From Solirubrobacteraceae bacterium (GTDB taxonomy: Bacteria; Actinomycetota; Thermoleophilia; Solirubrobacterales; Solirubrobacteraceae), in assembly GCA_029263125.1 (NCBI GenBank), contig JAJCYD010000035.1:62001-126000 (forward strand): a stretch of DNA of 64,000 bases. Reading direction: 5' to 3'. The notes under the pieces are model-generated. The model was not told the origin of the DNA. It was given only the letters and a program-made list of their open reading frames with translations, and ran no database searches. Positions 57,006 to 60,910 of the stretch are shown here, in pieces; position 1 is the first letter of the stretch, and each line of letters starts with the position of its first letter. The translations under genes were made by a program, and so were the position numbers.

Positions 57006-57665
57006 ATGTCCGTCGTCAAGCCCCAGTACGGCCCAACGCTGCCCGCGCTCGTCGCCCGCCTTCCGCGGTTCTGGCGCGCGGCGGTCATCGTCCTCGGCGC
57101 CGTGCTCGTCGCCGGCGCGATCGTGGTCGCGCTGCGCTCACGCTCCGAGGAGAACGCGGTGATCGTACGCGGTCCCGCGACGTTCAACCTCGTCTACCCG
57201 CGCGGATTGCAGCGCACGTCGCCACCGGATGCCCTGCTCGCCCTGCGCCGCGAGCGCCCCAGCGGCCTGTTCCTGGATTCCTACGTCGTGCGGCCGCTGA
57301 CGCTTCCGGCCTACCGCGGCGCGGTCGGCGGCCTGCTGCCGGTGTACGCCACCGGATACCTGAAGACCTTGCGCCGGCGCTACGCATCCGCGCGGCTGGA
57401 GCTCGAAGGACGCACCCGGATCAACAACGCGATCGGCTATCAGGTCGTGCTGCGTGCCAAGCGGGGACCGCGCACCCTCTACGTCCGCCACCTGCTGCTC
57501 GTCCCCGAGGCCCCCGACGGCGTTCGCCAGGGCGTCGTCATCGAGATCGAGGCGACACCGGCGTCGGGCGCGCCCAACGCCATCGGCGCCGGCAACGCCG
57601 GTCCGCTGAAGACCGCCCTGAGGTCGTTTCGCTTCGGCACGTCGCGCACGGGCGGCGAGCAGTGA
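57006..57665 (+). CDS. Membrane-anchored conserved hypothetical protein
   Basis: A 219-residue protein: cytoplasmic start, one membrane helix (AAVIVLGAVLVAGAIVVAL), then an exported domain of alternating strands (TFNLVYPRGLQRTSPPDALL, LFLDSYVVRPLTLPAYRGAV, NNAIGYQVVLRAKRGPRTLY). No catalytic motif seen. The stop overlaps the csaA start (GTGA), so both belong together. Function unknown. Confidence 0.6.
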   Translation: MSVVKPQYGPTLPALVARLPRFWRAAVIVLGAVLVAGAIVVALRSRSEENAVIVRGPATFNLVYPRGLQRTSPPDALLALRRERPSGLFLDSYVVRPLTLPAYRGAVGGLLPVYATGYLKTLRRRYASARLELEGRTRINNAIGYQVVLRAKRGPRTLYVRHLLLVPEAPDGVRQGVVIEIEATPASGAPNAIGAGNAGPLKTALRSFRFGTSRTGGEQ

Positions 57666-57991
57666 TCGAGATCGCCGACTTCCACCGCGTCGAGATGCGG
57701 GTCGGGCGGATCCTCGCTGCCGAGGAGTTCCCCGAGGCGCGGCACCCGGCATGGAAGCTTCGCATCGACTTCGGGCCCGATCTGGGCGAGAAGCGCTCGT
57801 CCGCGCAGATCACGAACTACACGCGCGAACAGCTCGAGGGCAGCCTGGTCGTCGCCGTCGTGAACTTCCCCCCACGGCAGATCGGTCCCGTGCGCTCAGA
57901 GGTGCTGGTGCTCGGAGCGGTGTCGGACGTCCACCCCGTGCTGCTCGTGCGACCGGACGCCGGATCGCAGCCGGGCGACCGGGTCGCCTGA
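57662..57991 (+). CDS. csaA: CsaA-like tRNA-binding-domain protein
   Basis: A 109-residue stand-alone OB-fold tRNA-binding protein: FHRVEMRVGRILAAEEFPEA, PAWKLRIDFGPDLGEKRSSA, QITNYTREQLEGSLVVAVVN, FPPRQIGPVRSEVLVLGAVS. CsaA acts as a chaperone-like/tRNA-binding factor linked to export in Bacillus. Dimer expected. GTG start overlapping the upstream stop. Confidence 0.9.
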   Translation: MIEIADFHRVEMRVGRILAAEEFPEARHPAWKLRIDFGPDLGEKRSSAQITNYTREQLEGSLVVAVVNFPPRQIGPVRSEVLVLGAVSDVHPVLLVRPDAGSQPGDRVA

Positions 57992-58005: not shown

Positions 58006-59580
58006 TCAGCCGCCCCGCGCCGCGCGGCGCGTGCGGCGCAGGATCTCGGCGCGCAGGCGCTTGATGCGCGTGACGGTCTTGGCTACCGCGCCGCCTGTGC
58101 CGGCGGCGGCCGGCGTGGCGTCGGCTGGCGTGGCGGCCGCCGGCGTGGCGTCGGCGTTCGCGGCGGGCTTCGGCGGTGCGGCGGCAGGCTCGCCGGGGCT
58201 CTCCTCGACAGCCGACGGACCCGCCGTCACCGGCTTGGAGGACGGGGTGTCCGGAGCGGTCGAGCTCGAGGTGGGAGCGGCGACGCCGCCGGTCTTCGGG
58301 GGAGCCTCGGCGCTCTGCTCCTGGCCCTTGGCGTCGGCGGGGTCGACGGGCGTGCCGGTTGCGGCGGCGTCAGGCGTGCTCGCCCCGGCCGCGTCGACCT
58401 TGGCCTCGGACTCGGCGATCGGCGCCGGCTTCGTGGACGTCGCCGCCGAGCCGGCGACCGCCGGCTTGGCGGCGGCCGGCTTGGCCTTCGGAGCGCTCGC
58501 GGGCTGTTGGGCGGAGGCGACGACCTCCGGCTCAGATGCAGGCACGGGCGCGGGCGCGGACCTGGCCGACGAGGTCGCGGCCGCAGCGGGGAGCTTTGTC
58601 TGCACGTGCTTGACCTCGACCGCGCCGGCCGTGACGATCGCGGCCGCCGCGAGGCCGGCCGCCGTCTTCGTGGCGATCGTGCTGATGCCTGCGGTCATGG
58701 CGCTCGTGCCCCCGCCGGCGGCGACCGTCGCGGCAGCGGCGCCGGCCGCACCGCCCGCGCTGGCCGAGGCCGTCATGCCGAACTGCGCCAGCAGCGCCTT
58801 CTTGAGCAGCAGCAGCGGAGCCACGGGGAACACGGCTGCGAGCGCCTTGTTGGCGTTGCGAAGCTGCGACTTGAAGCCCTGGCAGCGCTCGCACGACCGC
58901 ACGTGGCGCCGAGCGGGTGCCGTCGAGCGCCGGAGCCCCTCAGCGACCTCGCCGAGCTCCTCGCGCACGTCCTCGCACGACAGGTGACGTGCTTCGGAGG
59001 CTTCGGCAAGCGAGACACGAGCGCGCACCAGCAGCGACTTGACCGACGGGATCGTCGTCTCCATCGCCTCGGCGATCTGCTCGTATGACAGCGCATCGAT
59101 CTCGCGCAGCAGCAGCGCGGTGCGCTGCGTCTCGGGCAGCTCCTGCACGTCGGCGATCAGCAGCCGGAACTCTTCACGCTTGTGGACCTTGTCGGCCGTC
59201 GTGACGCCACCCTCGGAGAGGTGCACGTCCATCGAGTCGACGCCGATCGCCTGCACGCGGCGCAGGTGGTTCAGCGAGCGGTTGCGCGCGATGCGGTAGA
59301 GCCACGGACGAACGTTGATCGGACGGTCGTCGGCGAGGATCGCGTTGAAGGATGCGGCGAAGACCTCCTGCAGGATGTCCTCGGCGTCCTCGCGCGAGCC
59401 CAGCATGTGGCGGCAGAAGGCCAGCAGCCGCGCTTGGTAGCGCGCCACGAGCGCCTCGAAGGCCCCGTGGTTGCCGCGGCGCACGAGCGCGATGAGCCGC
59501 TCGTCGGATTGCAGGCGAAACAGCGGGGTCGGACCCCGCATGCCGATCGGGACCGGATGCTTGAGTGCTGAGGCTTCCAT
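58006..59580 (-). CDS. ECF sigma factor fused to an anti-sigma-like zinc motif and a membrane/Ala-Pro-rich tail
   Basis: A 524-residue protein. Sigma region 2 (DERLIALVRRGNHGAFEALV, DAEDILQEVFAASFNAI, RPWLYRIARNRSLNHLRR) spans about 27-110. Sigma region 4 (LPETQRTALLLREIDALSYE, IAEAMETTIPSVKSLLVRAR) spans about 140-190. Residues about 200-240 resemble a ZAS/zf-HC2 anti-sigma motif (H-x3-C-x2-C in RRHVRSCERCQGF). A hydrophobic stretch follows (about 290-320, TKTAAGLAAAAIVTAGAVEV), then a long Ala/Pro/Ser tail ending in basic residues. Normal ECF proteins are about 180-200 residues, so the extension is additional. Confidence 0.85.
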   Translation of the reverse strand: MEASALKHPVPIGMRGPTPLFRLQSDERLIALVRRGNHGAFEALVARYQARLLAFCRHMLGSREDAEDILQEVFAASFNAILADDRPINVRPWLYRIARNRSLNHLRRVQAIGVDSMDVHLSEGGVTTADKVHKREEFRLLIADVQELPETQRTALLLREIDALSYEQIAEAMETTIPSVKSLLVRARVSLAEASEARHLSCEDVREELGEVAEGLRRSTAPARRHVRSCERCQGFKSQLRNANKALAAVFPVAPLLLLKKALLAQFGMTASASAGGAAGAAAATVAAGGGTSAMTAGISTIATKTAAGLAAAAIVTAGAVEVKHVQTKLPAAAATSSARSAPAPVPASEPEVVASAQQPASAPKAKPAAAKPAVAGSAATSTKPAPIAESEAKVDAAGASTPDAAATGTPVDPADAKGQEQSAEAPPKTGGVAAPTSSSTAPDTPSSKPVTAGPSAVEESPGEPAAAPPKPAANADATPAAATPADATPAAAGTGGAVAKTVTRIKRLRAEILRRTRRAARGG

Positions 59581-59687
59581 GGTTGCCGGACGGCGGAACT
59601 GCGTTGCCGTCAGTGCTTCAACCCCGAAACGACGTGGGAGTTCCGCGTTTGGGCTCCCATCAGGCTAGCGACCCGACGGATGTTCGA

Positions 59688-59773
59688 TGCCCGGGGCGGG
59701 ATTCGAACCCGCAAGCTCTTGCGAGCCAGCGGCTTTTAAGGCCGCCTGCCTGTGCCGATTGGGCCACCCGGGC
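59688..59773 (-). tRNA. tRNA-Leu (anticodon UAA)
   Basis: 86 nt on the reverse strand. Acceptor stem GCCCGGG pairs with CCCGGGC, anticodon stem GCGGC/GCCGC has loop CTTAAAA (anticodon TAA), a long variable arm (TGGCTCGCAAGAGCTT) follows, and the T-arm has GGGTTCGAATCCC. The discriminator is A; CCA not encoded. The long variable arm and UAA confirm Leu. Confidence 0.95.
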
Positions 59774-59818: not shown

Positions 59819-60799
59819 CTACCTGCGGAACCGCTTGAGCTTGGACTTGAACGTCTTGTAGGCCTTGCGCGGCTGCCCGTTCTTCTCGACGAGGCCGGCG
59901 TCGAAGCGGTCGCAGTCCGAGCCGAACCAGTTGTAGGAGTACAGCCGCTCGATGTCCTTGTCGTACTTCTTGGCGCGATCGAACATGAACTTCGTGCGGT
60001 TGGACTGGCGGGTCTTGTTGCACGACAGGCTGCTGACCTTCGCCGCGCCGCCGGTCTCGGTGTACCAGAACTTGGCCCGCCGGTTCTTCTTGCGGACTGC
60101 CCTGATGATCCGCCTCGTGCCCGGGTACTTCTTGAAGCTGGTCGACTTCGAGCGCTTGGAGTCCCCAAGCTTGCGATTGACCTCGGAGTAGTTGTGGATC
60201 CCGACGATGACCTTCGAGCTGCGCCCAGAGGAGCCCGCATAGCGCAGCCAGCGCGCGATGTAGCTCTCCACGCCCCGCTGATCGAGCACGTCGAGCGCGA
60301 CGATCTTGCAGCCCTTGCACCTGGACTTCATCGCCTTGTAGAACTGCGCCGCCCGCTTGGGATTCTTTGTGGTCGGCTGGGACTTGTGGTTGGCCTCGTT
60401 CCAGACACCCCAATCCTTGACGCCGAACGGCTTGTAGCGCTTGATGAGCGCGCCGACCTTGGACTTGTAGGCCCTGAGGCTCGGCAATGGCCTTCTCGGA
60501 GAGCTGTTGATGTCGTCGGTCGAGATGTGCATCAGGACCTTGACCTTGGCGCCCAGCGCGGCCTTGACGAAGTCGTCGGCCTTCGCGAGCTGGTCGGCCT
60601 GATCGATCGCGTTCCACTCGATGAAGTAACGCGTCCGCTTGAGCTTGAGCGACTTCCAGTTGGCATCCGCGAACATTCGCGGGCTCTGATCGCCGATGCC
60701 CACGGCGACGTTGACCTTCTTGGACTTCGCGACGGCATTGCCCGGAATGGCCGCAACACCGACGGCCACCAGCAACGTCACGAGCAGGCGAACTTTCAA
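59819..60799 (-). CDS. Secreted TIM-barrel glycosidase-like protein (clan A)
   Basis: A 326-residue protein with a TTG start seven bases after AAGGA, and a signal peptide (1-24, ending AVA). A small basic Lys-rich barrel domain shows the acid/base Glu in WGVWNEANHKSQP (about residue 135) and the nucleophile Glu in FWYTETGGAAKV (about 246). Both are clan GH-A signatures. It shares its motif layout with the GH39-like protein at 37387. Very Lys/Arg-rich. Substrate unknown. Confidence 0.75.
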   Translation of the reverse strand: MKVRLLVTLLVAVGVAAIPGNAVAKSKKVNVAVGIGDQSPRMFADANWKSLKLKRTRYFIEWNAIDQADQLAKADDFVKAALGAKVKVLMHISTDDINSSPRRPLPSLRAYKSKVGALIKRYKPFGVKDWGVWNEANHKSQPTTKNPKRAAQFYKAMKSRCKGCKIVALDVLDQRGVESYIARWLRYAGSSGRSSKVIVGIHNYSEVNRKLGDSKRSKSTSFKKYPGTRRIIRAVRKKNRRAKFWYTETGGAAKVSSLSCNKTRQSNRTKFMFDRAKKYDKDIERLYSYNWFGSDCDRFDAGLVEKNGQPRKAYKTFKSKLKRFRR

Positions 60800-60910
60800 G
60801 GTTTCGGATCCTTTCAGCGAGGGAAGGCTGCAAGGCACCTATCGGCAGGGCGCCAGACGGGCTCAAGCGTAGCCGGGTCGGGCACCGCGCGCGGCAGACA
60901 TCCGTGGCCG

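What the first reader, a model, noticed from the sequence alone, without database searches (positions are those of the whole stretch)
58006..59580. ECF sigma factor that carries its own anti-sigma-like zinc motif and a membrane tail
After sigma regions 2 and 4 comes an H-x3-C-x2-C motif like that of ZAS anti-sigma factors, then a hydrophobic stretch and about 200 residues of Ala/Pro-rich sequence. It could be a self-inhibited, membrane-tethered sigma factor released by a signal. No separate anti-sigma gene is adjacent.
Basis: partly seen in the sequence, partly recalled or inferred. Interest (0 to 1): 0.5.

Follow-up and report, generated by a model that had tools for sequence, protein, structure and literature searches.

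The report
Sigma factor with built-in membrane anti-sigma
An actinobacterium encodes a gene switch (an ECF sigma factor) that carries its own predicted zinc-finger inhibitor, a weakly predicted membrane anchor and a long floppy tail in one protein; such fusions are already known in other actinobacteria, but this one belongs to a conserved, multi-copy family found mainly in Solirubrobacterales.

Summary
A hydrophobic helix follows the zinc domain. A second, strongly conserved but only marginally hydrophobic Ala-rich segment (300-326) is the likelier membrane anchor, followed by about 200 Ala/Pro/Thr/Ser-rich residues without a recognised domain. No anti-sigma gene is adjacent. Five further copies of this design lie in the same genome (one recognised by motif and layout only), and orthologues lie near tRNA-Leu(UAA) in 17 of 20 loci scanned. 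Upstream, an ECF-type promoter core, AACT-N16-GT(C/T), stands before 23 of 26 orthologues and suggests autoregulation; no second strong site was found genome-wide. The best mechanism is a one-protein sigma/anti-sigma switch, probably released by proteolysis. Published groups ECF48/52/53 have this design, so it is a new member of a known kind; unlike ECF52 it lacks the carbohydrate-binding domain, and its sigma part does not align by BLASTP with an ECF52-like protein. Zinc binding, membrane insertion, inhibition and release are untested.

The parts
58006..59580 (-). ECF sigma factor gene with fused anti-sigma-like domain, membrane-like segment and tail (524 aa)
   Evidence: ORF and translation; Pfam; orthologues
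59251..59451 (-). sigma region 2 (residues 44-110)
   Evidence: Pfam Sigma70_r2 E 4.7e-15; AF2 helices, pLDDT mostly > 90
59011..59148 (-). sigma region 4 (residues 145-190)
   Evidence: Pfam Sigma70_r4_2 E 1.2e-13; AF2
58831..58983 (-). anti-sigma-like zinc domain, helices H1-H3 (residues 200-250) with ligands C202, H226, C230, C233
   Evidence: invariant ligands in 41 of 41 rows; AF2; VIA-align RslA Z 4.6, DdvA Z 2.7; hhalign with L111 anti-sigma prob 94
58882..58905 (-). H226-x3-C230-x2-C233 motif
   Evidence: sequence, alignments
58771..58821 (-). hydrophobic helix after the zinc domain (residues 254-270), probable counterpart of anti-sigma helix 4
   Evidence: AF2 helix, pLDDT about 66; hydrophobicity
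58684..58770 (-). variable Gly/Ala/Ser linker (residues 271-299)
   Evidence: majority fraction 0.48
58603..58683 (-). conserved Ala-rich hydrophobic segment, putative membrane helix (residues 300-326)
   Evidence: majority fraction 0.76 against 0.35 for the tail in 14 orthologues, the window included; insertion energy marginal
58009..58602 (-). low-complexity Ala/Pro/Thr/Ser tail, basic C-terminus in this protein (residues 327-524)
   Evidence: composition and lack of conservation; no Pfam domain
59620..59644 (-). ECF-type promoter-like site GGAACT-N16-GTT, beginning 64 bases upstream of the start codon
   Evidence: AACT-N16-GT(C/T) in 23 of 26 orthologues, at most 2 of 26 at any other spacing from 11 to 21, shuffles mean 0.17, max 2
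59688..59773 (-). tRNA-Leu (UAA), conserved neighbour of the gene
   Evidence: ARAGORN; within about 2 kb in 17 of 20 loci scanned and in 5 of 5 genus loci
57662..57991 (+). neighbouring tRNA_bind-domain gene, convergent; not an anti-sigma factor
   Evidence: Pfam PF01588 E 2.3e-11

Best explanation
It is a one-protein sigma/anti-sigma switch. The N-terminal ECF sigma (regions 2 and 4) is held by its own C-terminal class-I, ZAS-type anti-sigma domain and by the hydrophobic helix behind it. A flexible Gly/Ala linker leads to a single membrane helix at residues 300-326, and the Ala/Pro/Thr/Ser tail lies outside the cell. [quoted passage not shown] Shown by sequence: fusion, invariant ligands, conserved membrane-like segment, conserved promoter core, paralogues and orthologues. 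Inferred: zinc binding, inhibition, membrane insertion and topology, proteolytic release, recognition of the promoter by this sigma, and the nature of the signal.
For: Sigma domains. Four ligands invariant in 41 of 41 rows (selection told under Tried and rejected), spaced C-x(21-24)-H-x3-C-x2-C. AF2 bundle, block pLDDT 90-97 over 201-250 (domain alone). RslA (Z 4.6, 61 residues) and DdvA (Z 2.7) are the top two of five VIA-align entries. hhalign with the free-standing ZAS anti-sigma L111 of the same genome: probability 94 over 50 columns with all four ligands aligned. The same genome uses separate sigma/ZAS gene pairs elsewhere, L111 and L113. Segment 300-326 is conserved (0.76) between a variable linker (0.48) and a variable tail (0.35). 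Promoter core in 23 of 26 orthologues and 7 of 12 genes of the paralogous clade 2. ECF52-like proteins carry the same order of parts (L139, L140), and a truncated SCO4117 was taken by its authors and by the review to support release from the extension (passages of PMC5826349 and PMC8999054).
Against: Membrane helix energy is marginal (+2.1; median +1.8 of 31 proteins) with recalled parameters; for this protein 5% of 60 composition-preserving shuffles of the region score as low, and the median over the 31 is 8%. Net charge is positive on the N-terminal flank in 23 of 31 rows, but in the window protein it is +1 on both flanks, so the orientation is not settled. AF2 leaves 272-337 below pLDDT 50, and with pTM 0.43 says nothing firm on whether the zinc domain contacts the sigma part. 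A profile of the zinc domain finds no anti-sigma among PDB sequences; Foldseek's first match is an unrelated phage baseplate protein (E 1.8) and its RslA matches have E 5 to 7.8. A second anti-sigma of the genome, L113, aligns over 21 columns only (prob 59). No other strong promoter site was found: the extended motif occurs exactly once, at the sigma gene itself, in 3 of 4 genomes, and GGAACTT-N15-GTT hits only 3 and 2 places in G003 and G006 (reversed-pattern controls 2 and 1). No sensor domain was found in the tail.
Confidence: 0.6

Rival explanations
1. A soluble self-regulated sigma factor: the zinc domain inhibits and senses (redox or metal) in the cytosol, while the Ala-rich segment and the tail are a disordered or self-associating extension and not a membrane anchor.
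For: Marginal insertion energy and shuffles sometimes as low; AF2 shows no helix at 300-326; a short ZAS anti-sigma exists in the same genome (L111, 77 aa), and cytoplasmic ZAS anti-sigmas are often linked to redox sensing (passages of PMC7406223).
Against: The segment is conserved in position and sequence (0.76), and is far more hydrophobic than the tail (median 1.8 against 5.4). ECF52-like L139 has a clearly hydrophobic stretch at the same place (by eye).
Confidence: 0.25
2. The zinc domain no longer inhibits; the sigma is controlled at the level of its own transcription, and the C-terminal extension only places it at the membrane or shortens its life.
For: Relatives L056, L061 and L091 keep sigma, a hydrophobic segment and a tail but have no HxxxCxxC; L005 and two genus orthologues have no extension at all; the gene's own upstream site is strongly conserved.
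Against: All four ligands are invariant in 41 of 41 rows while the rest of the domain falls to as little as 21% identity.
Confidence: 0.15
3. The conserved upstream element is an ordinary promoter or operator of this gene read by another factor, not by this sigma. (This rival concerns the autoregulation step only.)
For: Many orthologues show TGCTANNNTGT(C/T) inside it, which also fits an extended -10 of the housekeeping sigma (my reading; consensus recalled); no second strong site in the genomes searched.
Against: Five of five genus orthologues keep GGAACTT and GTT at the exact spacing without TGCTA; the same core and spacing stand before 7 of 12 genes of the paralogous clade 2.
Confidence: 0.3

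Closest known systems
ECF52 group (SCO4117 of Streptomyces coelicolor)
   Same: ECF sigma, then zinc finger, membrane helix and Pro-rich tail in one protein (published description); in the ECF52-like L139 and L140 also a hydrophobic stretch and a Gly/Ala linker between zinc finger and membrane helix (sequence by eye; zf-HC2; hhalign prob 91)
   Different: L139/L140 end in an NPCBM carbohydrate-binding domain (E about 3e-27), absent here; BLASTP of the window protein with L139 aligns no sigma part; here several paralogues per genome, against one ECF52 in S. coelicolor
ECF48 and ECF53 groups (Actinobacteria)
   Same: Review passage: C-terminal zinc finger (likely ZAS) and one to two membrane helices fused to the sigma, expected to be regulated by proteolysis
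   Different: Not compared: no sequence of either group was fetched
Class-I ZAS anti-sigma factors (RslA; RsrA, ChrR and RsiW recalled)
   Same: Zinc ligands and a three-helix bundle plus a fourth helix; RslA is the top VIA-align match
   Different: Here in cis with the sigma factor, not a separate protein
IutY of Pseudomonas putida (ECF243)
   Same: Sigma fused to its anti-sigma and released by proteolysis, shown experimentally (review passage)
   Different: Iron-starvation cell-surface signalling for a siderophore; no receptor partner was looked for or seen here

Membership tests
ECF sigma factors | sigma regions 2 and 4 without region 3 | tested here: met
   Pfam region 2 and region 4 families only; TIGR02937 sigma70-ECF 74.7 bits, cut-off 42.9, the only one of the 25 listed models above its cut-off
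Class-I / ZAS anti-sigma domain | H-x3-C-x2-C plus an upstream ligand at the start of helix 1 | tested here: met
   C202, H226, C230, C233 invariant in 41 of 41 rows
Class-I / ZAS anti-sigma domain | anti-sigma fold | tested here: inconclusive
   RslA and DdvA are the top two of five VIA-align entries, but Z is 4.6 and 2.7; zf-HC2 below cut-off for this protein, E 0.2
Class-I / ZAS anti-sigma domain | binds zinc and inhibits the sigma | not testable with these tools
   experiment needed
ECF52 | zinc finger after the sigma domains | tested here: met
   ligands; divergent zf-HC2; hhalign with L139 prob 91
ECF52 | transmembrane region | tested here: inconclusive
   conserved but marginally hydrophobic segment
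ECF52 | proline-rich C-terminal extension | tested here: met
   last 179 residues 28% Ala, 15% Pro
ECF52 | C-terminal carbohydrate-binding (NPCBM) domain | tested here: not met
   none in this protein nor in 8 of 8 relatives or paralogues scanned; present in L139 and L140
ECF52 | sigma domain of the ECF52 group | tested here: inconclusive
   BLASTP aligns no sigma part with L139; L139/L140 stand on a branch of length 2.6, but one clade with this family is not rejected, p-AU 0.398; no ECF52 model held
ECF48 / ECF53 | group-specific sigma sequence (ECF group HMMs) | not testable with these tools
   models not held; classification paper not held

The most novel reading that the evidence does not exclude
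Solirubrobacterales evolved a family of all-in-one sigma switches, several per genome, in which the extracellular part is only a disordered Ala/Pro/Thr tail: not a ligand receptor but a strand lying in or through the cell wall that reports wall state or tension, with cleavage at the conserved Ala-rich membrane segment releasing an autoregulated sigma whose main promoter is its own gene.
Probability: 0.12. Interest if true: 0.6.

Novelty: new member of a known kind. Interest (0 to 1): 0.38.

Why it matters
Fused sigma/anti-sigma proteins have hardly been studied: the review calls IutY the only experimentally characterised case of proteolytic release and SCO4117 the best understood of ECF48/52/53 (passages). 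A conserved single-gene locus with a defined candidate promoter makes the self-inhibition idea testable with one protein and one reporter. Relatives without the zinc motif and a paralogue without any extension are natural controls.

Tried and rejected
A separate anti-sigma gene next door: none seen. zf-HC2 as a curated hit in this protein: below cut-off. PDB sequence search with the zinc-domain profile: three weak hits, none an anti-sigma. Whole-model fold search: the 50 rows shown of 268 are sigma factors or complexes with one, because the sigma part fills the list. Regulon search by pattern: G003 3 hits (reversed control 2), G006 2 (control 1), own genome 19 with the looser pattern against 17 in the reversed control; among at most three ORFs read per hit, the only ones alike between genomes were the sigma gene itself, plus one other ECF gene at about 31% identity. 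Extended motif in four orthologue genomes: exact hit only at the sigma gene in three; in G175 three one-mismatch hits, one of them its own gene (reversed control 4 in G172, 1 in G175). Tree question whether the fusion arose once, with or without ECF52: not decided (p-AU 0.432 and 0.398; without the bare paralogue 0.133). ECF group classification: models and papers not held. No paper held 'ECF sigma factor' together with 'Solirubrobacter', nor 'ECF', 'sigma factor', 'anti-sigma' and 'Thermoleophilia' together; the library lacks most subscription papers, so this does not show that the family is unpublished.

Rows dropped: of the 80 loci, 46 were read and 34 were not; of the 46, 40 hold HxxxCxxC and went into A3. 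The six without are L040 and L067 (cut off by a contig end), L066 (a record named Patescibacteria), and L056, L061, L091 (complete, without the motif). L030 was left out of A4. L058, L059 and L070 have no identified start codon; L058 and L059 are therefore missing from clade 3 (11 of 13). L024 and L106 have the same upstream sequence, as do L045 and L110, so the promoter counts include near-copies. The promoter pattern was first seen in the alignment of 19 of these upstream regions, so its count in clade 1 is partly circular. With the first, stricter pattern it was 17 of 21 in clade 1, 3 of 10 in clade 2 and 0 of 13 in the rest; the looser core was chosen after L002 and L110 of clade 2 had been seen. 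The five genus orthologues and the spacing control were not used to find it.

Full report
What is there. The ORF at 58006-59580 (minus strand) is a 524-residue protein. Pfam finds sigma region 2 at 44-110 and region 4 at 145-190, and no other kind of family. NCBIfam calls it an ECF sigma factor at superfamily level; the other 24 models listed lie below their cut-offs. Behind region 4 stand C202, H226, C230 and C233. In an alignment of the window with 40 homologous proteins (identity 26-84%), all four are invariant. The 40 rows were chosen for HxxxCxxC, so the independent result is C202. Its distance to the histidine is 22-25 positions in all 40.

Is it an anti-sigma domain? AlphaFold2 on residues 1-345 gives four helices after the sigma part, at 202-213, 221-229, 231-250 and 254-270; block pLDDT is 90-97 over the first three and about 66 in the fourth; pTM is only 0.43, so the packing of the domains against each other is not informative. 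Three helices plus a fourth is the layout of class-I anti-sigma domains (recalled; the three-helix bundle and helices 1 and 4 as contacts are in passages of PMC7406223). The domain modelled alone was compared with the PDB. Foldseek finds nothing significant: its first match is a phage baseplate protein (E 1.8), and three of its five matches are RslA chains. VIA-align, on 23 chains, puts RslA first (Z 4.6, 61 aligned residues) and the membrane anti-sigma DdvA second (Z 2.7). These scores are weak on their own. A profile comparison with the 77-residue ZAS anti-sigma of the same genome (L111, overlapping the end of its own sigma gene) aligns 50 columns including all four ligands (probability 94); a second anti-sigma (L113) aligns only over 21 columns (probability 59). 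Pfam zf-HC2 matches 22 of 40 homologous segments at E <= 1, best 9.4e-4, and the window's own segment at 0.2 over the whole model. Taken together the domain is most likely a divergent ZAS domain.

Membrane segment and tail. There are two hydrophobic stretches. The one right behind the zinc domain (FPVAPLLLLKKALLA) corresponds to the fourth helix and carries two lysines. The second, 300-326, reads ATKTAAGLAAAAIVTAGAVEV at its core. In 14 orthologues (window included) the majority residue is held by 0.76 of the rows there, against 0.82 and 0.83 in the sigma regions, 0.69 in the zinc domain, 0.48 in the linker before it and 0.34-0.35 in the tail after it. So it is probably functional, and the most natural reading is a membrane helix with the tail outside. 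The caveat is real: with insertion-energy parameters recalled from memory its score is +2.1, the family median (31 proteins) +1.8, a canonical anti-sigma helix of the same genome -1.1, and the tails' best segments 5.4; composition-preserving shuffles of the region reach the observed value in a median of 8% of draws, 5% for this protein. The N-terminal flank is net positive in 23 of 31 rows, but in the window protein both flanks are +1. AlphaFold2 gives no confident helix there. The tail has no Pfam domain, no cysteine in this protein and little conservation.

Relatives. The same genome holds four further copies whose zinc domain matches the family profile strongly (L002, L003, L004, L007) and a more divergent one, L006, recognised by motif and layout but not listed by the profile search. 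One more paralogue, L005, has no extension (185 aa) and lies near clade 2 in the tree, with weak support. Within the genus, full orthologues were found in 5 of 6 other genomes; the sixth, 77% complete, shows only a partial match. In 61 genomes of the class (own included), 31 have a zinc-domain match at E <= 0.001, among them 7 of 7 in the window's family and 4 of 4 in another family of the order, each with E below 1e-20; elsewhere the matches are weak except in G013 and G060. In 118 genomes of the phylum 24 match at 1e-5; outside the class the best is 1.6e-9. Record titles of the close relatives name Solirubrobacterales, Solirubrobacteraceae, Thermoleophilaceae, Conexibacter and Patulibacter, or only the phylum. 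The locus is syntenic: tRNA-Leu(UAA) lies within about 2 kb in 17 of 20 loci scanned and in 5 of 5 genus loci. Complete relatives L056, L061 and L091 keep sigma, a hydrophobic segment and a tail but have no zinc motif; they form a separate, fully supported branch.

Promoter. Aligning upstream regions showed a block CGCAACT...TGCTACGGTGTC in many orthologues. The common core is AACT-N16-GT(C/T), the geometry of ECF promoters (-35 AAC, -10 GTC/GTT; recalled). With 120-base upstream regions it occurs in 23 of 26 orthologues of clade 1 at spacing 16, in at most 2 of 26 at any other spacing from 11 to 21, and in 0.17 (max 2) of dinucleotide shuffles; in 7 of 12 genes of the paralogous clade 2; in 0 of 11 of clade 3 and 0 of 6 others. 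A stricter first pattern gave 17 of 21, 3 of 10 and 0 of 13. The window's genus carries GGAACTT-N15-GTT in 5 of 5 orthologues; the window itself has GGAACTC. This supports positive autoregulation. Against it: genome-wide searches find practically no second strong site, and TGCTANNNT inside the block could also be an extended -10 of the housekeeping sigma.

Comparison with the known. Passages of two papers were read on this point, after a search listing. [quoted passage not shown] The review groups ECF48, ECF52 and ECF53 of Actinobacteria as C-terminal fusions with a zinc-finger domain and one or two membrane helices, expected to be regulated by proteolysis, and says IutY is the only case so characterised experimentally (PMC8999054). 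My profile found two such proteins in large genomes of the phylum, L139 and L140: sigma region 2, zf-HC2 (above cut-off in L140 only), NPCBM at the end; upstream of L139 an ORF reads like a TetR regulator (by eye), and SCO4117 lies downstream of the regulator gene atrA (that AtrA is of the TetR family is recalled). I call them ECF52-like; their identity rests on these features. The window protein has the same order of parts but no NPCBM, and BLASTP aligns no sigma part with L139. A tree of sigma domains neither shows nor rejects a common origin. It therefore works like ECF52 but is not filed as ECF52; ECF48 and ECF53 could not be compared.

Verdict. The kind of protein is known; the Solirubrobacterales family, its copy number, its variants and its conserved promoter are what this analysis adds.

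Noticed in passing
L005:1576-2133:-; L147, L148: A paralogue of the same family has no C-terminal extension and ends in HAA in all three genomes read. The review mentions a C-terminal di-alanine for the orphan sigma AntA in its section on regulation by proteolysis (passage), so control by degradation may have replaced the fused inhibitor.
   Followed up: partly
L056, L061, L091: Related sigma factors with a hydrophobic segment and a low-complexity tail but no zinc motif: possibly tethered sigma without the inhibitor domain.
   Followed up: partly
window 59688-59773: tRNA-Leu(UAA) stays near the sigma gene, but its strand relative to the gene differs: same strand in the window and 5 of 5 genus loci, opposite in 13 of the 17 other loci that have it.
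   Followed up: no
L146 (G022:C1:959000-963500): A further relative with the zinc motif whose tail, by eye, holds two cysteines and a long charged stretch between Pro-rich parts; start codon not determined.
   Followed up: no
L111, L113: The same genome has ordinary sigma/ZAS anti-sigma gene pairs, one short (77 aa) and one with hydrophobic segments (173 aa).
   Followed up: yes
window 59819-60838: Upstream neighbour on the same strand, 339 aa with a hydrophobic N-terminus, no Pfam hit; ORFs with similar C-terminal ends lie beside the orthologues in L150 and L151 (by eye).
   Followed up: no
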